DNA from: Bibersteinia trehalosi
GTDB lineage: Bacteria; Pseudomonadota; Gammaproteobacteria; Enterobacterales; Pasteurellaceae
DNA length: 64,000 nucleotides
Assembly: GCF_004346205.1 (NCBI RefSeq)
Contig: NZ_SMAM01000001.1
Coordinates: 248,001-312,000 of the forward strand
Reading direction: 5' to 3'
The translations under genes and the position numbers were made by a program. Shown one piece after another: positions 6,403 to 46,792 of the stretch (the first letter of the stretch is position 1; each line of letters starts with the position of its first letter). A model generated the notes under the pieces. It saw only the letters and a program-made list of their open reading frames with translations, ran no database searches and was not told the origin of the DNA.

Positions 6403-7294
6403 GTTTTCCTCCTTGCTCGTGGTGCTCTTCCACGTCTTCTTCGTTATTTGGGCCAATAGCAATATAGTGTGCAGCCGCACTTAACGCTAAGCCTGCCATC
6501 GATACCGCAGCGACTGGTTTGAGTACATCTTTCCAGAGCGTAATCGTTGGGTCAATTTGCGGATCTTTTGGTAAGCCTGAATAAAGTTCTGGCTTGTCAG
6601 CGTGGTGTAATACATACATCACGTGCGTACCGCCAACCCCTTCTGGGTCGTAAAGTCCTGCATTCTCATAGCCACGAGATTTCAGATCTGCAATGCGTTT
6701 TTCCGCATAGTGTTTCATCTCTTCTTTGCTACCAAATTGGATTGCACCAGTTGGGCAAGTTTTCACGCAAGCAGGTTCTTGACCTACGGTTACACGATCT
6801 ACACAGAGAGTACATTTATACACACGGTTATCTTCTGGATTCATTCTTGGAATGTTAAACGGACAACCTGCGATACAGTATCCGCAGCCGATACATTTGT
6901 CCGATTGGAAATCCACAATGCCATTGGCATATTGAATGATCGCCCCCGGTGCTGGGCAAGATTTCAAACAGCCTGGTTCGGAGCAGTGCATACAACCGTC
7001 TTTACGGATAAGCCATTCTAACCGTTCGTTTTCTTCCACCTCATTAAATCGCATCACTGTCCATGCTTTAGCGTTGAGATCGGCGGGGTTATCGTAAACC
7101 CCAACACAGTTTTGCGGTTCTGCCCGAATATCATTCCATTCAGAACAACCAACCTGACAAGCTTTACAGCCGATACAAGCAGAAACATCAATCAGTTTTG
7201 CTACTTCAACTTGATGGTTTCTTGCTTGTGGAGCAGGCGTTAAAGCCGAAGTTGCAGAGGCTTTAATAATGTTTTGAGATTGAACTACACCCAT
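6395..7294 (-). CDS. fdnH: Formate dehydrogenase beta subunit, four [4Fe-4S] clusters
   Basis: Electron-transfer subunit between the selenomolybdenum catalytic subunit and the membrane cytochrome. 299 residues. Four ferredoxin cysteine motifs are visible in order: [37 protein letters not shown] and CTLC...CVKTCP. A single hydrophobic helix near the C-terminus (about residues 255-277) fits the known membrane anchor of FdnH/FdxH. The start lies 2 bases after the fdnG stop, and the end overlaps fdnI, so the three genes form a tight operon. Confidence 0.96.
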
Positions 7295-7296
7295 TT

Positions 7297-10200
7297 TTAG
7301 CCTCCGATTTTCTCAATGTTTACTAACATACATTTTGACTCAGGGGTTTGTGTATTTGCATCACCAGAACGGACAGTTAAGTTATTAGCAAAATAACCTT
7401 TTTTTGCTTTGGTGGTTGCAGCAAAGCCCCAGTGAATAGGAATCCCTACCGTATGAATCGGTTTACCGTCAGAAACAAGCGGACGGATACGTTTGGTAAC
7501 TAAGGCAACACATTTAATTTCGCCACGTTTAGACCAAACACGCACTCGGTCGCCATTGCTAATGCCTTTTTCCACCGCTAAGGCTTCGCTAATTTCAACA
7601 AATTGCTCAGGTTGAGCGACAACGTTAATCAGCGAGTTCTTTGTCCAGTAGTGGAAATGCTCGGTTAAGCGGTAAGTGGTCCCTACATATGGAAACTCAT
7701 CGCTTGTACCAAGATCTGCTTTATCAGACGGTAAAATGCGAGCCACAGGACTTTGTACCACATTTGGGTGTAATGGATTTGTGCCAATTGGTGTTTCCAT
7801 TGGTTCGTAGTGTTCAGGGAAAGGCCCGTCCACCATACGTTCACGCACAAATAAGCCACTTACCCCTTCAGGCTGCATAATAAACGGCATTGTCGGACTA
7901 TTTGGAGGGGCTGTACCAAAGTCGGCAACATCAATATAGTTCCAGTTTGTACCATTCCATTTCACGAGCTGACGTTTTGGATTCCATGGGTTGCCTGCTA
8001 AATCCGCAGAAGCACGGTTATAGAGGATACGGCGATTCACTGGCCATGCAAATGCCCAACCTAGTGTGTTACCTAAACCTGACGGGTCAGAGTTATCACG
8101 GTTTGCCATTTGGTTACCTCTTTGCGTCCATTGTCCGGTGTAGATCCAGCATGCACCAGAGGTTGTTCCATCATCACGCATAAAAGCAAAACTTGGTAGT
8201 AATTCACCTTTTTTCACGACAAGATTACCGTTAGCATCTTTGAGATCGACTAATGCATAACCATTGTTCTCTTTCGCTAGTTCCTCTGCTTTTGGATCAC
8301 GAGGGTTTGCATAGTTCCAGCTCATTGCTTCTAAACCTGCAAGTGGTGCTTTTCCGCCCTCTTTTGCATAAAGAGCTAACAATTCCGCACGAAGTTCTGA
8401 GAGAATCTCCACATCAGGTTTTGCCTCAAATGGAGCATCAGCAGCTTTCCAGTGCCATTGCAACCAACGCCCAGAGTTAGCGATTGAGCCATCTTCTTCT
8501 GCGAAGCAGGTGGTTGGCAAGCGGAATACCTCGGTTTGAATCTGTGCAGGATCTACATCGTTAAATTCCCCATGATTCATCCAAAATTCGGAGGTATCAG
8601 TAATGAGTGGATCAAAGATTACTAAGTATTTTAAATTACTCAGTGCCTTGATGATTTTGCCCGAATTTGGATAAGAAGCAACAGGATTCATGCCTTGGCA
8701 GAAATAGCCGTTTACCTTGCCTTCATACATTTTTTCAATGAAACGCATATGATCCATACCGCCTTTTTCTAATTTCGGCAGGTAGTGGAAACCAAATTCA
8801 TTTTCAGCTGTTGCTTTATCGCCAAAGAATGATTTCATCATACTGATGAAGAATTTTGGCGTATTACCCCAGTAGTTAGTTTGATCTTTACCCATTTTTT
8901 TAGGGGTAATACGATTTAAGAATGCTTCTAAGCTGGTATCGCTTTCGGTTGGCAATGGTAAATAAGCTGGTAAACGATTTGGGAATAGCCCTAAATCGGT
9001 AATACCTTGCACATTGGAGTGTCCACGCAATGCATTTACCCCACCGCCGGCAACACCGATATTTCCGCAAAGCAACTGAATCATTGCCATTGTACGAATG
9101 TTTTGTGAACCCACTGTGTGTTGAGTCCAGCCAAGAGCATACAAGAATGTGGCTGCTTTGTCAGGCGCGGCTGTTTTAGCGATTTCTTCACAGAAGATGT
9201 GGAAATCTTTTTGTGAGGTACCTGTAATGCGTTCTACCATTTCAGGAGTGTAGCGAGAAACGTGTTCTTTTAAGACATTGATTACACAGCGAGGGTGCTG
9301 CATTGTCATGTCTCGTAACGGTTCACCATTCTCATCAAATTGGTATGCCCAAGTAGATTTGTCTTTGTAAGTTCGAGTGGCTTCATCGTAGCCTGTGAAA
9401 AGGCCATCTTCAAATTTAAAACCATCATTGATTAAGAATGTTGCATTAGTATAGTGCTTAACGTATTCGTGCTGAATTTTATCGTTTTGTAACAAATAGT
9501 TAATCACACCAGAAAGGAAGGCAATATCCGTGCCTGAACGTAATGGCATATAAATATCAGCAACAGCAGCAGAGCGGTTAAAGCGTGGATCAACCACCAT
9601 TAACTTCGCACCGTTTTGTTTTTTTGCCTCAATCGCCCAGCGGAAACCGACAGGGTGAGCTTCGGCAGCGTTACCACCCATTACAATAACGAGGTCAGAG
9701 TTTTTAATATCAACCCAGTGATTGGTCATCGCACCGCGACCAAATGATGGAGCAAGACTTGCTACCGTTGGTCCGTGTCAGATACTCGCTTGGTTATCAG
9801 TGAAGGTAATACCGAGTGCACGTACAAATTTTTGTGTGAGCAAACCTGTTTCGTTACTACATGCAGAGCCAGCTAAGAAACCAGCAGTAAGCCAGTGATT
9901 GACAGGAGTGCCTTCGGCATTCTTCTCAATGAAGTTCGCATCACGGTCATCTTTCATATGGCGTGCGATACGCTCAATTGCCTCATGCCAAGAAATACGT
10001 TTCCACTCTGTTGAACCCGGTTCACGCACTTCTGGATATTTTACGCGGCGATCACTATTGACATAGTCTAATGCGCCTGCGCCTTTCGGGCACAATGCGC
10101 CACGACTGACTGGGTGGTCAGGGTCGCCTTCAATATGAATCAGCTTCCCTTTACTATTCATTGTGGCATCGCCACCTAAGCTGTACATCAGCATACCGCA

Positions 10201-10371
10201 GCCGACTGCACAGTATGTACAGGTTTGACGGGTCTCTTTTGCCCGTAGCAATTTGTATTCACGAGGCGCAGCTAAGGCTTGTGCTGGGGCAAACCCCAAC
10301 ATAGCCGCAGATGTGCCTGCCATACCACCTGCACAGATCTTAAAGAATTTTCTTCTATTGACCTGTAACAT
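7297..10371 (-). CDS. fdnG: Selenocysteine-containing formate dehydrogenase alpha subunit
   Basis: Catalytic subunit (Mo-bis-MGD, selenocysteine, one [4Fe-4S]) oxidising formate in the periplasm. An in-frame TGA at 9778-9780 splits the frame; continuous reading through it gives 1024 residues, near the 1015 of E. coli FdnG. The TGA is codon 198, flanked by DNQASI and [10 protein letters not shown], matching the family selenocysteine site (U196 in E. coli). A twin-arginine signal [12 protein letters not shown] starts the protein; CTYCAVGCG plus a downstream Cys bind the cluster. Start taken at the ATG at 10371 behind GGAG, not the GTG at 10377. Annotators that treat TGA as stop will break this gene in two. 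Confidence 0.96.
9738..9780 (-). promoter_or_regulatory. SECIS element with selenocysteine UGA of fdnG
   Basis: On the minus strand the UGA (9780-9778) is followed by a foldable segment: lower stem GACCAA / UUGGUC (9773-9768 with 9743-9738) and an apical AGCAA / UUGCU stem closing a GUC loop. Position directly after the UGA and a G-U-containing apical loop are what the bacterial selenocysteine elongation factor SelB needs. This supports readthrough rather than a sequencing error or pseudogene. Confidence 0.85.
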
Positions 10372-10546
10372 AATCACTCCAAAACCGCATTTGCGGTCAT
10401 GTCTTACTTACAATAAAATTAGCGAGTGCTAAACCGATGAGTTAGTCGAAGGGTGATGAACACTTACTACGACTTTATCAATGGCATAAATGATACATTT
10501 TTTTAACAAATTAAACTACTTTTTACCCCAATTTTTAGGAAATAAT

Positions 10547-11359
10547 GTGAGTTCGATCAAAAAAATCCCAGCAAAACGATTGGTTATTGAGAATGGTTCT
10601 TTTTCCATTAAAAATCAACAGGATAATTTAATTTCAGAAGTACCCGTTGCACTCGTTTACAATGGCATTTCTCACACAGTAATGATGTGTACACCACAAG
10701 ATTTGGCTGATTTTGCATTGGGATTTTCACTTGCTGAAGGCATTCTGCTCAATAAAAAAGAGCTTTATGGGCTAGATATTATATCGCACTGCAATGGCAT
10801 TGAAATTCAAATGGAAATCAGCACTCGCCGTTTTACCGAATTAAAAGCAAAACGCCGCTCAATGGCAGGGAGAACAGGTTGTGGTATTTGTGGGGTAGAG
10901 CAATTAGAGCAAGTGCAACAAGATGGCAGAAATTTTGTAAAAACAGACCGCTTGCAGGCGGTGTCTCCGCTTATTTTTAATCATTGCTTAGCCCAGCTTG
11001 AAAATGCGCAAACACTCGCAAAAGAGACTGGGGCAAGCCACGCCGCGGCATTTTTTACCCCCGAAGGTAAAATGTTAGCTATTCGAGAAGACGTTGGAAG
11101 ACACGTTGCACTGGATAAATTACTCGGTTGGTATGCTAAAGCGGATAGCCCATTAGGTTTTGTCTTTGTGACCAGCCGAGCCAGTTTTGAAATGGTACAA
11201 AAGTGCCTAGCCTGCGGAATTGAAATGCTCTGTGCGATTTCTGCTACTACCGAAATGGCGCAGCAAATGGCAGAGGAAAATGGGTTTACCCTATTAGCAT
11301 TTACCCGCAAAGGGAGAGCCACGATCTATTCAGGAAGTAATAGATTGGCATTAGATTAA
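10547..11359 (+). CDS. fdhD: FdhD, sulfurtransferase for formate dehydrogenase
   Basis: Transfers sulfur from IscS to the Mo-bis-MGD cofactor so that formate dehydrogenase becomes active. The conserved RTGCGICGVEQL loop contains the two catalytic cysteines; GREDVGRHVALDKLLG-like sequence (REDVGRHVALDKL here) and the C-terminal FTRKGRATIYS are family hallmarks. The open frame runs from an ATG at 10490, but the first 19 residues are poorly family-like and have no ribosome site; the GTG at 10547 behind AGGAAA gives 270 residues (E. coli 277) and is preferred. Divergent from fdnG, about 175 bases apart. Confidence 0.93.
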   Translation: MSSIKKIPAKRLVIENGSFSIKNQQDNLISEVPVALVYNGISHTVMMCTPQDLADFALGFSLAEGILLNKKELYGLDIISHCNGIEIQMEISTRRFTELKAKRRSMAGRTGCGICGVEQLEQVQQDGRNFVKTDRLQAVSPLIFNHCLAQLENAQTLAKETGASHAAAFFTPEGKMLAIREDVGRHVALDKLLGWYAKADSPLGFVFVTSRASFEMVQKCLACGIEMLCAISATTEMAQQMAEENGFTLLAFTRKGRATIYSGSNRLALD

Positions 11360-41535: not shown

Positions 41536-42951
41536 TTAAAAGCGACTTTCGATGATCAGATTCGCATTTTTATCCGTGTAAGCATATAGGCTTGGTAAGT
41601 TGCTATGATGTTTAGCATAGCCAAGTTGCAGTTTGGGTGTAAACCCTAACCAATGCCAATCTCGTTTCCAAAGGGTAAGATTAATGCTGTTCACACGATC
41701 ATGGCGAATTTTACCCAGATTAAGTTTGCCTCCCAGCACCGCAGTGTCTTTATAATGTCTGTCGGTGTAAGCTAGGGTCAGGCGGCTTGATAATCCAAGT
41801 GTTTGCCATTCCTGCTGCCAGCCGAAACGTAAGCTTTTGGTATCAGAACTATGTTGTTTCAATACGGTTTTATCTCGGTTGAAATCCGTGCCAATAAAGA
41901 AAAATTGTTGCGGATTACGTAGCCAGAGTAGGGTGGCTGAAGCAAGTTGATAGTTGCCATTATAAATGTGTTGGTCGAAATAGCGTTTTTTACCATACTC
42001 GAATGCAGTAGCAAGTTGCCAGCGAGAAGAAAGCCAATGCGCATGTTCTAGCCTTAATCCGTTTGTCCAGCGTTCTGATTGATGATGTTTCCAGCGTTTT
42101 TCATAAAATGGTAATACGCGGGTGGTTTGCTGTGACTTTTTGTAAGCATAGCCAAACAAAGCGCGATTGGTGATTTCATCGTAGCCATGATTATCCCAAT
42201 AAAGTTCCCCCTGCGTTTGATTATCGAAACTAAGGTAATGCGAGCCAAGTAGGTTAAAATCTCTTTGTAGTCCAAAAGAATAGTGAATTCCGTGCGCAGT
42301 TTGTGGTAACAGGTTAGGCTGTTTCACATAGCCGGTATGCTCAATTTCAGTTTGTTTGGATGTGTTATTGATATTACCATCCCGTACATAGTGGGCAGAG
42401 AAATTGAACTTCCAAGCTTGTTTTTTCTCCAGATATTGCTGATACTGTTCAATCAGTTGCTGCACTTTATAAGGTAGATTTTCGGCACTTTTAGCTTTAT
42501 CGAATTGTTCACTTGCCGCATTCGTTTGTTGATCATGTAGTGATGCAATTGCCAGTTCAATTCGTACGGTATTTAGTTCAGGTTGTTTAGCAAGAATAGT
42601 GCGAAACTCTCGAATAGCTTGTGAATAATTTCCTTTAAGTAGCGCGATTTTACCTTGAGCATAGCGCAATAAAATTGGGTCAATATGGGCAAAATCTTGA
42701 TAAATTGTGACCAGTTTTTCCATATTAGTGAGCTGGCGAGTATAGATAGCTTGGCTGAGTAATTTTTCGGTTAATGCCTGATTAGCACGTAATTCAGCTT
42801 CGTTAAAAATGTGGCGAGACGATTGTTCCACTGCAAGCTGTAAGGGTGCCGATGTTGGTTTAGCGATATGTTCTATTTGGCTAGGTGTACTATTGGGATC
42901 TTGAGCAAAGAGTAATGTCGGAAAAAAAAACAGTAATGGAAATTTCTTCAT
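41536..42951 (-). CDS. slam: Slam-family outer-membrane translocator of surface lipoproteins (DUF560)
   Basis: Slam proteins move specific lipoproteins across the outer membrane to the cell surface. 471 residues: signal peptide [16 protein letters not shown], an N-terminal TPR domain (about 30-180; [31 protein letters not shown]), and a C-terminal beta-barrel (about 185-471) of alternating aromatic strands that ends in a terminal Phe (LIIESRF), typical of barrel insertion. Right downstream of a lipoprotein gene of Slam-substrate type. It is separated from it by 56 bases holding a strong hairpin. Confidence 0.88.
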
Positions 42952-42970
42952 TTCTTATCCTTAGAAAAAG

Positions 42971-42994
42971 AAAAGGGCTGTTACCAGCCCTTTT
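42971..42994 (-). terminator. Hairpin between lipoprotein gene and slam
   Basis: Perfect ten-base stem AAAAGGGCTG / CAGCCCTTTT with a four-base loop, followed on the minus strand by CTTTTTCT. It lies inside the lipoprotein-slam transcript and probably terminates part of it, so that more lipoprotein than translocator is made. Confidence 0.8.
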
Positions 42995-43007
42995 AGCTAT
43001 GGCGAGC

Positions 43008-44258
43008 CTATTTTTCAGTTTTCACTGCACCAAATACAGCGTTATATTTAGTTATGCCGTTATCTTTTATATTATCTTCTTTTTCTAATTGTATAGACCC
43101 TACAGCATCGTTTAAAGTTGGTCCAACTAATTTTACTGAATAGTCTCCTTCTAAATCATCTTGTTTATCTGCGGTAGCTGTACCGTAGAAACCAATTTCA
43201 TAGGTTGGCTGGAAAGCTGCTGGTGCAAGCTTGCTTTGTTCAAGAGTAATTTTACCTACACTATTACTATTTACTGTACCGGTTAATGTGCTGTTTTCCC
43301 ATTTACTATCTAAATGCAGACTAAGGGTAACATCACCATCAATTTTAGGTGTCTCAACTACCGATTGTCCATTGATCTGTTTTTCCACACGGGCAATTAC
43401 ATTACCTTTATATTCAGCATCACCCAGTAGCTCATTATTCCATTTACCATTTTTACCTTGTAAAGTGTAAACCGTATATTCGGCACTATTAGTATTACTA
43501 CCAGCCCCGCTATCTTCAGAAATACCATCACTGTCGCGACCGGTTTTTAGTTGCACGTGGAACAGATTACTATTTTCGGCATCAGTAAAAAGAGCACCAT
43601 AGCTAGAATACGGTTGATTGATGTAGAGGTAGCTAATTTCTTGGCTATTACCAACCAATCTAGAGTCTTTATAGCTGCCTTGATGCAGGCCAAGGTAGTT
43701 ATCGCCTCGATTGTTAAGAGATTTAATAAAACGACTGTCTTGAGTATTTTGACCTAATTCAAAACCAAGAGAATAGTTATATTCTGTATCTCCAAACTCT
43801 TGGCTGGCTCCAAGTGGTGATTTATCACTTTTTAGGTGGTAATCCGTATGATCTGCTCTTGCGCTACTTACATTAACTAAACTTCCTGTCTGACTTAATG
43901 CAACAACTCGCCATGCCTGGCCTTTGCTATCCTCATTAATACCAGAAGCGTACGGTTTATTCTTTGGTATATCAGGTTGTGCGGGTTGTTCTGGTTGAGC
44001 TGGTTTTTCTGGTGTAGGAACAACGGGCTCTGGCTGTTTTGGTGTTTCGGCTGGAGTAACCGGTTTTGGTTGCTCAGGTTTAGCAGGAATGTTATTGGCT
44101 TTATTCGATTCTTCCTTTTTATCCTTTTCCTTTGTGATTTGAATTGGTTGAGGCTCTGAATTTTTTGCTACCACAGATGGACCATGGCTAGATTTACAGC
44201 CAGTAATCACAAAAGAAACCGCAATTGCGGCAAGAGTAAGTTTAAATGTAGAACGCAT
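43008..44258 (-). CDS. Predicted Slam-dependent surface lipoprotein
   Basis: Lipoprotein of 416 residues. Signal peptide with lipobox VITGC (Cys21); residues 22-102 form a charged then proline-rich tether (many PEK/PEQP repeats, 58-102); the rest is predicted beta-rich. The C-terminal segment includes EIGFYGTATADKQDDLEG, GSIQLEKED and ends VFGAVKTEK, which resembles the TbpB-type barrel domain common in Slam substrates (the usual G-x-FYG...ELGG...FGAKK pattern). Ligand unknown. Neighbours: slam downstream, znuD divergent, so a metal- or haem-binding co-receptor is the best guess. ATG 44258 follows GGAGATAAA. Confidence 0.75.
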   Translation of the reverse strand: MRSTFKLTLAAIAVSFVITGCKSSHGPSVVAKNSEPQPIQITKEKDKKEESNKANNIPAKPEQPKPVTPAETPKQPEPVVPTPEKPAQPEQPAQPDIPKNKPYASGINEDSKGQAWRVVALSQTGSLVNVSSARADHTDYHLKSDKSPLGASQEFGDTEYNYSLGFELGQNTQDSRFIKSLNNRGDNYLGLHQGSYKDSRLVGNSQEISYLYINQPYSSYGALFTDAENSNLFHVQLKTGRDSDGISEDSGAGSNTNSAEYTVYTLQGKNGKWNNELLGDAEYKGNVIARVEKQINGQSVVETPKIDGDVTLSLHLDSKWENSTLTGTVNSNSVGKITLEQSKLAPAAFQPTYEIGFYGTATADKQDDLEGDYSVKLVGPTLNDAVGSIQLEKEDNIKDNGITKYNAVFGAVKTEK

Positions 44259-44347
44259 GTTTTATCTCCGTTAGGTTAAATCCATAAAATTTTAATGGAT
44301 ATATTTCCTGCTTGGCAAGAGGGGAAAGATAAAAATATATAATTTTT

Positions 44348-44399
44348 TTATGGTTATTATTGTCAAGCCTCATATTTTGCAGTAACTTATTAACCATAA
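44348..44399. promoter_or_regulatory. Possible operator in znuD / lipoprotein divergent region
   Basis: Nine-base inverted repeat TTATGGTTA (44348-44356) / TAACCATAA (44391-44399), placed between the two divergent starts. The 161-base intergenic region is very AT-rich. It does not match the E. coli Zur consensus well, so the regulator is unassigned. Confidence 0.35.
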
Positions 44400-44419
44400 T
44401 TATTTTATGGAGAATAAAA

Positions 44420-46792
44420 TTGTTTAATAAAAAATTACTAGCTGTGTTGATTTCAGCCCAATTTAGCCCGCTTGTTTGGGCAAACAATAACGATGTTGCA
44501 GTGTTAGACGAAGTTTCAGTAGTTGGTAGTACACCGAGTATTTCGCAAGGAAGTGAAGTTACCTTACTGAAAGTCAGTGATAAAATTATTGCAGGTAAGG
44601 AATTTAAAAAGCGCTCAGCAACGCTGGGCAATGCGCTTGCAGCGGAGTTAGGTGTACACAGTAACCCGTTTGGCGGTGGCGCGAGTAAGCCAATTATCCG
44701 TGGCCAAGAAGGCGCGAGAATTCGTATTCTGCAAAACGGTTCGGATGTGATTGATATGTCAAACCTATCGCCAGATCATGCGGTGGTTGCCGATTCATTG
44801 CTTGCTAAACAGGTAGAAATTTTGCGTGGTTCCAGTACCTTGCTTTATGCCAGCAGTTCACCGGCTGGGATTGTGAATGTGGTAGATAAACGCATTCCAA
44901 CTGAGATCCCAGAAAAGGGCTATGAAGTGGAACTCAATAGCCGTTTTGATACCGCTGCCAAAGAGAAAGTCGGCGCATTAGGAGCAACCTTTGGTATCGG
45001 CAAACATATTGCGGTGCGAGCCGAAGGGCTGACCCGCCACAGCGATAACTACCGTGTTCCAGGGATTAATTTAGGCGAACGGTTAAACTATGTACCGGAT
45101 ACTTATAATAAATCCAAAGTCGGTACGTTAGGATTGTCCTTTGTTGGTGAGCAAGGTTATATCGGTGCGTCATACAGTAAACGGCGGGATAACTATGGCT
45201 TACCAGGGCATAACCATAAATTCGATTTCTGTACTGGTCATATTTACGGCAATAAACGGGACAAATACGCCTATACCTATCTCTATCCGCATTTGATTGG
45301 CGAGGAAAACATTGGGAGCAATCCGCATTTCCACTGTGGAACTAATCATGCAGAAGATGGTACACACAGTCACGATAATCCATTCGGACACGATCACGAC
45401 CATACACACCCTGGTCCATGGGTTGATTTAGAATCCAAACGATTTGATGTAAAAGCCGAGTTGCGTCAGCCATTCAAAGGTATTGATAAAATTAAAGTAA
45501 GCTACGCCGATGCCGATTATTACCATGACGAAAAAGATGCCGGTGTGTTAGCAACACGCTACCATAAACAGCTGAAAAAAGATCAGGATTATGGCAAACC
45601 GGTCAATATTTTCAAAAATCGAGGCAAAAATGCCCGCTTGGAAATCTATCATGCACCACTAGATGGTTTAACCGGTGTATGGGGCGTGCAGTACCAAACT
45701 CAGAAGAGCAGCATGCATGCACCGAAAGATCGTGAAGTGAAATTCCCGCTGGTTGAAAACACGAATAAACAGATGAGCCTGTTCGGTATTGAACAGTATA
45801 TGTGGGATAATTTTGCTCTTGAATTTGCCGGACGAGTAGAAAAGCAGAAGATTGAAATTGAATACGATCGCAATGAAATCAAACGCTTGCAGGATCATTA
45901 TCGCATTAGTGGTGGTCAACAGGTTGAGCCAGATCTGTCTCCTTATAACCAAAATGCTTATGCCTATTCCAGTACGCTAAATTGGTTTTTCCACCCAGAT
46001 TATCAACTTTCATTTACTGCATCGCATAACGAACGTTTCCCAACGCCGATGGAGCTGTATTATCACGGACAGCATATTGCGACTAACTCGTTTGAATACG
46101 GCAATAAAGATTTGAAAAAAGAGCAATCTAACAATGTAGAACTAGGCTTAGGTTATCAAACTGAGCGAGTTGGATACAAAGTAAATGTTTATTACAACCA
46201 CTTTAAAAACTACATTTACAATGAAAATTTATTCCGTGAAAATCAGTTGTTTATGCGTCGTTATAACCAGGCAAAAGCCCGTTTTTACGGCATAGAAGCT
46301 GAGGCAAGCTACCGCTTTAACAACAAATACCAAGCCACGATTTTTGGTGATATGGTAAGAGGCTGGCTGACCAATTTACCTCCACTGACGGTAAACAGCG
46401 ATTACAGCGTATTTAAAGATTATTTACCAAAAGATGCTAAACCAGGTGAAGATTATTTGATTTATCGTGCTGATCAAAATACGCCTCGAACCCCTCCTGT
46501 ACGACTAGGTTTTCGTTTTAATGCGGAGTTTACCCCAAATTGGTCAGGAGATTTAGAATTGATCCGTACCTTTACTCAACGCCGTACCAGCCAGTTGGAA
46601 TATATCACGGAAGGTAATACGATGTTAAATATAGGTGTGGCATATAGTAATAAGTGGAAAGATTTGGATTACAAAATCAGCCTAAACGGCACGAATCTGC
46701 TGAATCAGCCAGTTTATATTCATACCTCCTACCACCAATTTGTGCCGCAAATGGGGCGTAACTTTATCTTAGGAATGGAAATGAAATTTTAA
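44420..46792 (+). CDS. znuD: ZnuD-type TonB-dependent receptor (zinc, possibly haem)
   Basis: Outer-membrane TonB-dependent transporter. About 790 residues from a TTG start at 44420 behind GGAGAATAAAA (MFNKKLLAVLISAQFSPLVWA signal peptide); the frame upstream to 44360 has no such signal. Plug domain with SKPIIRGQEGARIRILQNGSDVIDMS-like sequence, then a 22-strand barrel ending MGRNFILGMEMKF. It matches the Neisseria ZnuD pattern across the length, including GLPGHNHKFDFC, LYPHLIGEENI and a His-rich loop at residues about 264-334 (13 His, 2 Cys in 71) suited to zinc capture. Divergent from the lipoprotein-slam pair. Confidence 0.9.
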   Translation: MFNKKLLAVLISAQFSPLVWANNNDVAVLDEVSVVGSTPSISQGSEVTLLKVSDKIIAGKEFKKRSATLGNALAAELGVHSNPFGGGASKPIIRGQEGARIRILQNGSDVIDMSNLSPDHAVVADSLLAKQVEILRGSSTLLYASSSPAGIVNVVDKRIPTEIPEKGYEVELNSRFDTAAKEKVGALGATFGIGKHIAVRAEGLTRHSDNYRVPGINLGERLNYVPDTYNKSKVGTLGLSFVGEQGYIGASYSKRRDNYGLPGHNHKFDFCTGHIYGNKRDKYAYTYLYPHLIGEENIGSNPHFHCGTNHAEDGTHSHDNPFGHDHDHTHPGPWVDLESKRFDVKAELRQPFKGIDKIKVSYADADYYHDEKDAGVLATRYHKQLKKDQDYGKPVNIFKNRGKNARLEIYHAPLDGLTGVWGVQYQTQKSSMHAPKDREVKFPLVENTNKQMSLFGIEQYMWDNFALEFAGRVEKQKIEIEYDRNEIKRLQDHYRISGGQQVEPDLSPYNQNAYAYSSTLNWFFHPDYQLSFTASHNERFPTPMELYYHGQHIATNSFEYGNKDLKKEQSNNVELGLGYQTERVGYKVNVYYNHFKNYIYNENLFRENQLFMRRYNQAKARFYGIEAEASYRFNNKYQATIFGDMVRGWLTNLPPLTVNSDYSVFKDYLPKDAKPGEDYLIYRADQNTPRTPPVRLGFRFNAEFTPNWSGDLELIRTFTQRRTSQLEYITEGNTMLNIGVAYSNKWKDLDYKISLNGTNLLNQPVYIHTSYHQFVPQMGRNFILGMEMKF

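What the first reader, a model, noticed from the sequence alone, without database searches (positions are those of the whole stretch)
41536..46792. Slam + surface lipoprotein + ZnuD receptor: a candidate two-part metal or haem receptor with its own translocator
Seen: a DUF560-type Slam gene, a lipoprotein with proline-rich tether and TbpB-like C-terminus directly upstream of it, and a divergent ZnuD-like TonB-dependent receptor with a His-rich loop. Known: Slams export surface lipoproteins such as TbpB and haem-binding relatives, often next to their receptor; ZnuD imports zinc and can bind haem. Inference: the lipoprotein is a co-receptor that captures zinc, haem or a host carrier and hands it to ZnuD. 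I know of no described Slam-dependent lipoprotein working with ZnuD, though I cannot search.
Basis: partly seen in the sequence, partly recalled or inferred. Interest (0 to 1): 0.85.

Follow-up and report, generated by a model that had tools for sequence, protein, structure and literature searches.

The report
Zinc receptor with lipoprotein partner
In a group of animal-associated bacteria a zinc importer appears to be paired with its own changeable surface lipoprotein and exporter, under the same DNA switch as other zinc-starvation genes, which would extend the two-part receptor design known for iron and haem to zinc.

Summary
In detail: 41536-42951 (-) is a Slam, 43008-44258 (-) a lipoprotein whose model has the Slam-substrate fold, 44420-46792 (+) a ZnuD with all four zinc ligands. 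In 140 Pasteurellaceae genomes, all 9 with this ZnuD (>=77% identity) carry the lipoprotein divergently beside it, in four genomic settings; Slam is there in 5. The shared promoter carries a palindrome (CCATWAWWWWWTTATRG) that outside this module lies upstream of znuA, znuD or an L31 ribosomal paralogue at 65 of 86 places; it precedes 9 of 9 ZnuD-linked lipoproteins (one with a mismatch) and 0 of 8 unlinked ones. The nearest ZnuD relatives carry a different Slam-type lipoprotein directly downstream. ZnuD and Slam are conserved while the lipoprotein's folded domain was exchanged. Best reading: a zinc-starvation-induced bipartite receptor, the zinc counterpart of TbpAB/HpuAB. A haem role is disfavoured. 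Co-reception, zinc control and ligand are inferred, not shown; in this genome znuA has only a two-mismatch copy. A co-regulated immune-evasion lipoprotein is the main rival. The searches made found no paper describing a ZnuD with a lipoprotein partner.

The parts
41536..42951 (-). Slam (type 11 secretion outer-membrane protein), 471 aa
   Evidence: Pfam SlipAM 293.2 bits and TPR_Slam 98 bits, both over cut-off; one of five Slams in the genome
42971..42994 (-). Hairpin plus T-run between lipoprotein and slam: possible partial terminator/attenuator
   Evidence: 8 terminator-like sites in the region against 5.1 expected by shuffling, so the scan alone is weak; a similar hairpin in 5 of 5 loci that keep Slam
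43008..44258 (-). Surface lipoprotein (SLP), 416 aa: signal peptide, lipobox Cys21, tether to about residue 105, folded domain about 106-416
43011..43943 (-). Folded handle-plus-barrel part of the SLP (residues 106-416), the part that has been exchanged between genomes
   Evidence: G000 against G004: dS 0.014 in residues 1-105, then 0.87, saturated and 1.44 in three stretches of residues 106-416
44282..44298 (.). Operator palindrome A (CCATAAAATTTTAATGG), upstream of the SLP, overlapping a -10-like hexamer
   Evidence: the SLP promoter has an exact copy in 8 of 9 linked loci and a one-mismatch copy in the ninth
44337..44353 (.). Degenerate middle copy B (two mismatches to the pattern searched; 26 such matches in the window against 15 expected)
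44394..44410 (.). Operator palindrome C (CCATAATTATTTTATGG), just upstream of ZnuD
   Evidence: A and C are the only perfect matches in this genome
44420..46792 (+). ZnuD-type TonB-dependent zinc receptor, 790 aa from TTG
45209..45415 (+). His/Asp-rich external loop of ZnuD (residues 264-332; 13 His)

Best explanation
The three genes form a zinc-starvation-induced bipartite outer-membrane receptor. Slam (the one encoded here, or another in the cell where it is missing) puts the lipoprotein on the surface. On its long tether the lipoprotein catches a zinc-bearing ligand, most likely a host protein such as an S100 protein or albumin, and presents it to ZnuD, which strips and imports the zinc with TonB energy. 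Shown here: the genes, the fold class (by model), the conserved zinc site, the linkage, the operator shared with zinc genes and the exchange of the lipoprotein's folded domain. Inferred: zinc control, surface display, physical partnership with ZnuD, and the ligand.
For: Linkage: 9 of 9 genomes with this ZnuD (of 140 searched) have the SLP divergently beside it, in four genomic settings, while 5 of 9 keep Slam there. Regulation: 124 strand matches of the operator pattern against 23 for the reversed control, in 48 of 140 genomes, that is 98 unique places. Twelve of them lie in SLP-znuD gaps. Of the other 86, 65 lie within 250 bp upstream of rpmE2 (27), znuA (22) or other znuD genes (16), and 21 do not. 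In this genome the two perfect matches are both in this gap, and one of nine one-mismatch places lies at the start of znuCB. Operator within 150 bp upstream: 9 of 9 linked SLPs, 0 of 8 unlinked SLPs, 0 of 7 genes at this genome's other Slam loci, 0 of 6 unlinked relatives of the second SLP type. Second pairing: in the sister ZnuDs (G048, G049; split support 100/99) a different lipoprotein with the same fold class lies 12-14 bp downstream of ZnuD, which has two operators upstream. The four zinc ligands are present in the window ZnuD and in the 7 other intact linked orthologues aligned. A conserved receptor with a more variable lipoprotein is the pattern reported for TbpA/TbpB (PMC7857515, passage).
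Against: No binding, complex or expression was tested. In this genome znuA has only a two-mismatch operator copy, rpmE2 is not among the matches, and matches with up to one mismatch number 16 against 11 for the reversed control. The SLP has no obvious conserved metal site: only His192 is invariant among its histidines, so it would have to bind a carrier rather than zinc itself. Unlinked SLP relatives exist without ZnuD (8 loci examined), so the fold is not zinc-specific. In 18 other ZnuD regions no Slam-type lipoprotein was recognised, so ZnuD can probably work alone. dN/dS of the SLP is 0.16-0.35 in most pairs (1.0 in one near-identical pair), so the variability is not shown to be positive selection. 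Fold matches do not discriminate ligands.
Confidence: 0.58

Rival explanations
1. The lipoprotein is an immune-evasion or shielding protein that is merely switched on by zinc starvation as a cue of being in a host; like PmSLP-1 it would bind a complement regulator, and sit beside ZnuD for co-expression only.
For: PmSLP-1, a Slam-dependent lipoprotein of Pasteurella multocida, binds complement factor I (PMC12080921, passages); fold matches tie fHbp with TbpB and hemophilins; exchange of the folded domain would fit immune selection.
Against: The linkage is with ZnuD more than with Slam (9 of 9 against 5 of 9), and a second lipoprotein type sits beside the sister ZnuDs. The SLP profiles match no solved Slam substrate by sequence.
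Confidence: 0.26
2. A haem system: the lipoprotein is a lipidated hemophilin or HpuA-like haem/haemoglobin catcher and the receptor imports haem.
For: Fold matches include hemophilins of Haemophilus and Acinetobacter (Z 12.9-13.7); haem-receptor models hit the ZnuD below their cut-offs (72-75 bits against 317-324).
Against: ZnuD keeps the four-residue zinc site; meningococcal ZnuD did not bind haem-agarose (PMC4557270, passages); the promoter shares its operator with zinc genes and has no match to the Fur consensus within 3 mismatches, a strict test.
Confidence: 0.05
3. No functional link: the three genes travel together as a surface-antigen cassette and the shared operator matters only for ZnuD.
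For: The module sits in different places in different genera, and between this genome and two of another genus ZnuD and Slam are 97-99% identical while ZnuC is 78-80%, so it has moved recently; two copies lie beside apparent transposase genes (naming from recall).
Against: An operator copy lies immediately upstream of the SLP itself in 9 of 9, apart from the one at ZnuD; the pair persists where no Slam is found at the locus.
Confidence: 0.11

Closest known systems
TbpA-TbpB, LbpA-LbpB and HpuA-HpuB bipartite receptors
   Same: A TonB-dependent receptor linked to a Slam-type surface lipoprotein with a handle-and-barrel fold; conserved receptor, more variable lipoprotein (PMC7857515, passages)
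   Different: Receptor is ZnuD-type; operator is that of zinc genes; lipoprotein has one handle-and-barrel unit and no sequence match to any solved member
ZnuD / TdfJ of Neisseria
   Same: Same receptor family, same zinc ligands, His-rich loop. ZnuD homologues in Pasteurellaceae, M. haemolytica included, were already listed by its discoverers (PMC2895646, passages)
   Different: [quoted passage not shown] here one is linked. The core of the Zur consensus quoted in PMC2895646 is not found in this promoter
PmSLP of Pasteurella multocida with its Slam
   Same: Pasteurellaceae Slam plus adjacent surface lipoprotein of similar fold
   Different: [quoted passage not shown] the main text of that paper has 0 occurrences of 'TonB'; no sequence match found
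Hemophilins / HphA with Slam and haem receptor
   Same: Slam-linked, TonB-receptor-linked (PMC8406197, passages, for HrpC), same fold class
   Different: Here a lipobox and long tether, ZnuD instead of a haem receptor, zinc-gene operator

Membership tests
Slam (T11SS outer-membrane protein) | SlipAM barrel and Slam TPR domain | tested here: met
   293.2 and 98 bits, both over cut-off
Slam (T11SS outer-membrane protein) | Moves its lipoprotein to the surface | not testable with these tools
   needs a display assay
Slam-dependent surface lipoprotein (fold class) | Lipobox behind a signal peptide | tested here: met
   MRSTFKLTLAAIAVSFVITGC by inspection; Cys21 invariant in 9 of 9
Slam-dependent surface lipoprotein (fold class) | Handle domain plus eight-stranded C-terminal barrel | tested here: met
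   Predicted model only: pLDDT block means 86-98 over 261-416, lower in the handle; fHbp, TbpB and hemophilins at Z 13-15 over 103-416
Slam-dependent surface lipoprotein (fold class) | Gene next to slam | tested here: met
   met in the window and in 5 of 9 orthologous loci, the window's included; 4 of 9 show no slam in the 14 kb fetched
NCBIfam NF041636 slam_lipo equivalog | Score over 80 bits | tested here: not met
   20.8 bits; so it is not filed under this equivalog
ZnuD | Zinc ligands Asp99, His100, Glu340, His499 of meningococcal ZnuD | tested here: met
   Aligned residues Asp119, His120, Glu371, His552
ZnuD | NCBIfam NF038289 cut-off of 950 bits (kind: exception) | tested here: not met
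   630.9 bits; a strict naming model, so it is called ZnuD-type on residues and homology, not on this model
ZnuD | Zinc-dependent expression | tested here: inconclusive
   Operator shared with znuA, rpmE2 and other znuD genes across the family; no expression data
TbpAB/HpuAB-type bipartite receptor | Receptor and lipoprotein genes linked | tested here: met
   9 of 9 linked
TbpAB/HpuAB-type bipartite receptor | Receptor and lipoprotein co-regulated | tested here: inconclusive
   operator copies towards both genes; no expression data
TbpAB/HpuAB-type bipartite receptor | Lipoprotein binds the ligand and docks on the receptor | not testable with these tools
   needs binding and complex assays
Hemophilin | Haem binding | not testable with these tools
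   same fold class only
PmSLP | Detectable sequence relationship to PmSLP-1 | tested here: inconclusive
   No match up to E 10 with the SLP profiles; PmSLP entries 9b3e and 9b3h are in the fold library, but that the sequence copy also holds them was not checked

The most novel reading that the evidence does not exclude
This is the first bipartite surface-lipoprotein/TonB receptor dedicated to zinc. The pairing arose in one ZnuD clade, has recruited two different lipoproteins, and is induced through a zinc operator in a bacterial family without a separate Zur protein. The lipoprotein's exchangeable head would decide which host zinc protein is plundered, or shield the conserved receptor.
Probability: 0.48. 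Interest if true: 0.82.

Novelty: new variant of a known kind. Interest (0 to 1): 0.72.

Why it matters
The Slam-dependent co-receptors described in the review seen (PMC7857515, passages) serve iron or haem, and another review states that Neisserial TdfJ (ZnuD) has no such partner (PMC6965322). A zinc version would give a concrete mechanism for zinc piracy in Pasteurellaceae, including Mannheimia haemolytica, would give a function to a changeable surface antigen, and comes with a testable zinc regulon in a family that has only one FUR-family protein per genome.

Tried and rejected
Haem reading: disfavoured by the zinc ligands, the operator and the lack of a close Fur-consensus match (one search allowed only 3 mismatches, so weak Fur sites would be missed). 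Classical Zur box: the core GTTATANTATAAC with up to 3 mismatches has no match between 44259 and 44419, and in the window is no commoner than chance (35 against 39.3 expected). A zinc site in the SLP itself: no conserved His/Cys/Asp cluster stood out by eye. SLP against solved structures by sequence: nothing convincing. SLP in genome contigs: no relative found; one further scan, with ZnuD, was then allowed and gave 5 loci. The second SLP type near znuCB in three genomes of the Mannheimia group (G089, G094, G095): not in the same operon, and in the two scanned without the operator, so not used. Fold searches cannot tell a TbpB-like from an fHbp- or hemophilin-like ligand (rows tied). PmSLP is not among the 50 rows shown for the window SLP, which excludes nothing.

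Limits of the counts. In one search at most 7 candidates per genome were scored. Of 25 genomes with an SLP match the 9 strongest are the linked set; of the other 16, one neighbourhood each was examined in 8 and none in 8. The 20 ZnuD regions are a selection of the matches. In the 18 without the second SLP, 14 open frames were flagged as possible lipoproteins by a crude motif; 10 of the 14 were scanned with Pfam: none matched TbpB_B_D, FHBP_C or HpuA at E<=0.01, and 3 matched nothing. G092's znuD has an internal TAG and was left out of the ZnuD alignment and tree. One unlinked SLP (G056) runs to its contig end and could not be scanned for the operator. The 8 unlinked SLPs come from 7 genomes; they and the own-genome genes had been scanned before over 250 bp with a looser pattern, where 2 of 9 SLPs (G066, G069) had a two-mismatch copy. 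The pattern was chosen after seeing the window's sites and the znuA sites, so its fit there is partly by construction; the rpmE2 sites and the unlinked znuD sites were not used to choose it. No chance expectation was computed for the 250-bp classification. In one search the row for the G048 ZnuD promoter is a positive although it prints under the heading 'unlinked'; its shuffles keep single-base composition only. The six module places not scanned were assigned by coordinates. The tree carries the program's warning about long branches.
Full report
What is there. The window holds a complete Slam (41536-42951, -), a lipoprotein (43008-44258, -) and a divergent ZnuD-type receptor (44420-46792, +; the start at TTG is inferred from the ribosome-binding site and orthologues). 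The genome has four other Slams. The lipoprotein has a lipobox, a tether to about residue 105 that the model leaves unstructured, and a folded part. Its AlphaFold2 model (mean pLDDT 69; block means 86-98 from residue 261, lower in the handle) matches NHBA, TbpB lobes, factor H binding protein and hemophilins, with Foldseek E down to 7e-7 and VIA-align Z of about 13-15 over residues 103-416. These rows are tied, so the fold class is settled as far as a model can settle it, but the ligand is not. Profile searches of solved structures by sequence find no relative.

The receptor. It aligns over nearly its whole length with meningococcal ZnuD (4rdr, E 7e-167). With the numbering of that structure paper (PMC4557270, passages) the four ligands of the buried zinc site, Asp99, His100, Glu340 and His499, correspond to Asp119, His120, Glu371 and His552 here. 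They are present in all 8 intact linked receptors aligned, the window's included. The loop that carries two His-rich clusters in that structure has 13 His here. The same paper reports that purified meningococcal ZnuD does not bind haem-agarose and that its pocket is too small for haem.

Linkage. Searching 140 Pasteurellaceae genomes, the lipoprotein is matched in 25 and ZnuD at E<=1e-60 in 50. Nine genomes have a ZnuD of at least 77% identity, and all nine have the lipoprotein immediately divergent from it. Slam accompanies the pair in 5 of 9; in the other 4 no Slam was found in the 14 kb fetched. So the lipoprotein is tied to ZnuD more tightly than to Slam. In 8 loci of unlinked relatives examined, 7 have a Slam beside the lipoprotein and none has a match to this ZnuD.

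Regulation. The 161-base gap between the two starts holds two perfect copies of a 17-base palindrome and a degenerate middle copy, at about 56-base spacing. In this genome the two are the only perfect matches to the pattern CCWTAAWWWWWTWAWGG; nine further places have one mismatch, one of them at the start of znuCB; with up to one mismatch there are 16 strand matches against 11 for the reversed control, so the one-mismatch set is mostly background. Upstream of the ZnuA gene a copy within one mismatch of a similar consensus lies in 14 of the 15 genomes looked at, and a two-mismatch copy in this one; for znuC, 7 of 15 have a copy within two mismatches and 8 have none. Over 140 genomes the pattern CCATWAWWWWWTTATRG gives 124 strand matches in 48 genomes against 23 for the reversed control, that is 98 unique places, 12 of them in SLP-znuD gaps. 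Of the 86 others, 27 lie upstream of the gene that I name rpmE2 (the zinc-free L31 paralogue; name from recall of its sequence), 22 of znuA, 16 of other znuD genes, and 21 elsewhere. L31 paralogues, znuA and znuD are standard members of zinc regulons (general knowledge). The operator lies within 150 bp upstream of 9 of 9 linked lipoproteins (8 exact, 1 with one mismatch), and of none of 8 unlinked lipoproteins, 7 genes of the own genome's other Slam loci, or 6 unlinked relatives of the second lipoprotein type (best 3 to 6 mismatches). Neither a Zur-type core nor a close match to the Fur consensus is found in the gap. Each of the 140 genomes has exactly one FUR-family match at E<=0.001, so a separate Zur seems absent. 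P. multocida znuACB has been reported to be under Fur (title of a paper in the reference list of PMC8000910; the paper itself not seen). Which protein reads the palindrome is open.

A second pairing. The nearest ZnuD relatives outside the set (G048, G049; 62%) have a different lipoprotein 12-14 bp downstream of ZnuD. It scores 32-36 bits with slam_lipo and 19-21 bits with TbpB_B_D, below both cut-offs, but the model of one of the two (mean pLDDT 65) matches Slam substrates, with PmSLP the best row. Two exact operators lie upstream of each of these ZnuDs. The SLP-paired receptors of both kinds form one group in a tree of 29 ZnuDs (100/99 for the split). In the 18 other ZnuD regions fetched no Slam-type lipoprotein was recognised (limits given under Tried and rejected). 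Relatives of the second lipoprotein occur in 35 of 140 genomes at E<=0.001, many weakly; the 8 further loci looked at do not have it directly beside ZnuD (in one, G115, a ZnuD lies several genes away).

Divergence. Between this genome and G004, Slam (dS 0.06), ZnuD (dS 0.12) and the SLP's first 105 residues (dS 0.014) are nearly unchanged, while the SLP's folded part has dS of 0.87 and more. That points to an exchange of the exposed part, not slow drift. dN/dS of the SLP stays at 0.16-0.35 in most pairs, so positive selection is not shown. ZnuC of the same two genomes is 78% identical, so the module itself has also moved recently. A conserved receptor with a variable lipoprotein is what is reported for TbpA and TbpB (PMC7857515, passage).

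Mechanism. The best reading is a bipartite zinc receptor: Slam displays the lipoprotein, the lipoprotein captures a zinc-bearing ligand and ZnuD imports the zinc. Since the lipoprotein shows no conserved metal site of its own, a host zinc protein is the likelier ligand. Gonococcal TdfJ takes zinc from S100A7 without a lipoprotein (PMC6965322, passages), so the partner would add affinity, selectivity or shielding rather than be indispensable. A hairpin with a T-run between the SLP and slam in 5 of 5 loci may hold Slam below its cargo (inference).

Against known work. Hooda and colleagues found TonB receptors in 120 of 185 Slam-lipoprotein clusters, with 0 occurrences of 'ZnuD' or 'zinc' (PMC5449769, passages and term counts); two T11SS surveys have none either (PMC12282271; PMC8406197; passages and term counts). 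ZnuD homologues of M. haemolytica and other Pasteurellaceae were listed in the ZnuD discovery paper, which has 0 occurrences of 'lipoprotein' (PMC2895646, passages). [quoted passage not shown] Full-text searches for ZnuD with Slam and lipoprotein (8 papers, all listed), Slam-dependent with zinc (10 papers, all listed), Mannheimia with Slam, surface lipoprotein or zinc (10 of 18 listed) and Mannheimia haemolytica, ZnuD, zinc or lipoprotein (10 of 27,662 listed) list no paper whose title or shown start of abstract describes such a pair. The library holds only openly licensed papers, and a 2024 survey of Slam-dependent hemophilins and a 2003 paper on bacterial zinc regulons are not held, so priority cannot be claimed beyond these searches.

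Odds.

Noticed in passing
140 Pasteurellaceae genomes; window 44282-44298 and 44394-44410: A palindrome (CCATWAWWWWWTTATRG) marks znuA, rpmE2 and znuD in a family whose genomes each hold exactly one FUR-family match; the regulator that reads it is unknown.
   Followed up: partly
window 43011-43943: The folded domain of the lipoprotein has been exchanged between closely similar modules while the tether, Slam and ZnuD are nearly identical.
   Followed up: partly
L213:463-1350 and L214:7511-8590: A second, different Slam-type lipoprotein lies directly downstream of the sister-clade ZnuD in two genomes.
   Followed up: yes
window 42971-42994: Hairpin with T-run between lipoprotein and slam; a similar one in 5 of 5 loci.
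   Followed up: partly
L054 (G069) 6827-10656: A distant relative of the lipoprotein lies beside an 888-aa protein that by eye looks like a TonB-dependent receptor, with no Slam found in the 14 kb fetched.
   Followed up: no
L038 (own genome C6): Another Slam locus of this genome with two lipoproteins and what by eye looks like a TonB-dependent receptor, without the operator.
   Followed up: no
L044 (G092), znuD: The znuD of one linked genome is interrupted by an in-frame TAG.
   Followed up: no
L151, L155, L157: The same palindrome lies upstream of one and the same gene in three genomes of one genus; by eye it looks like a zinc-type alcohol dehydrogenase (name from recall).
   Followed up: no
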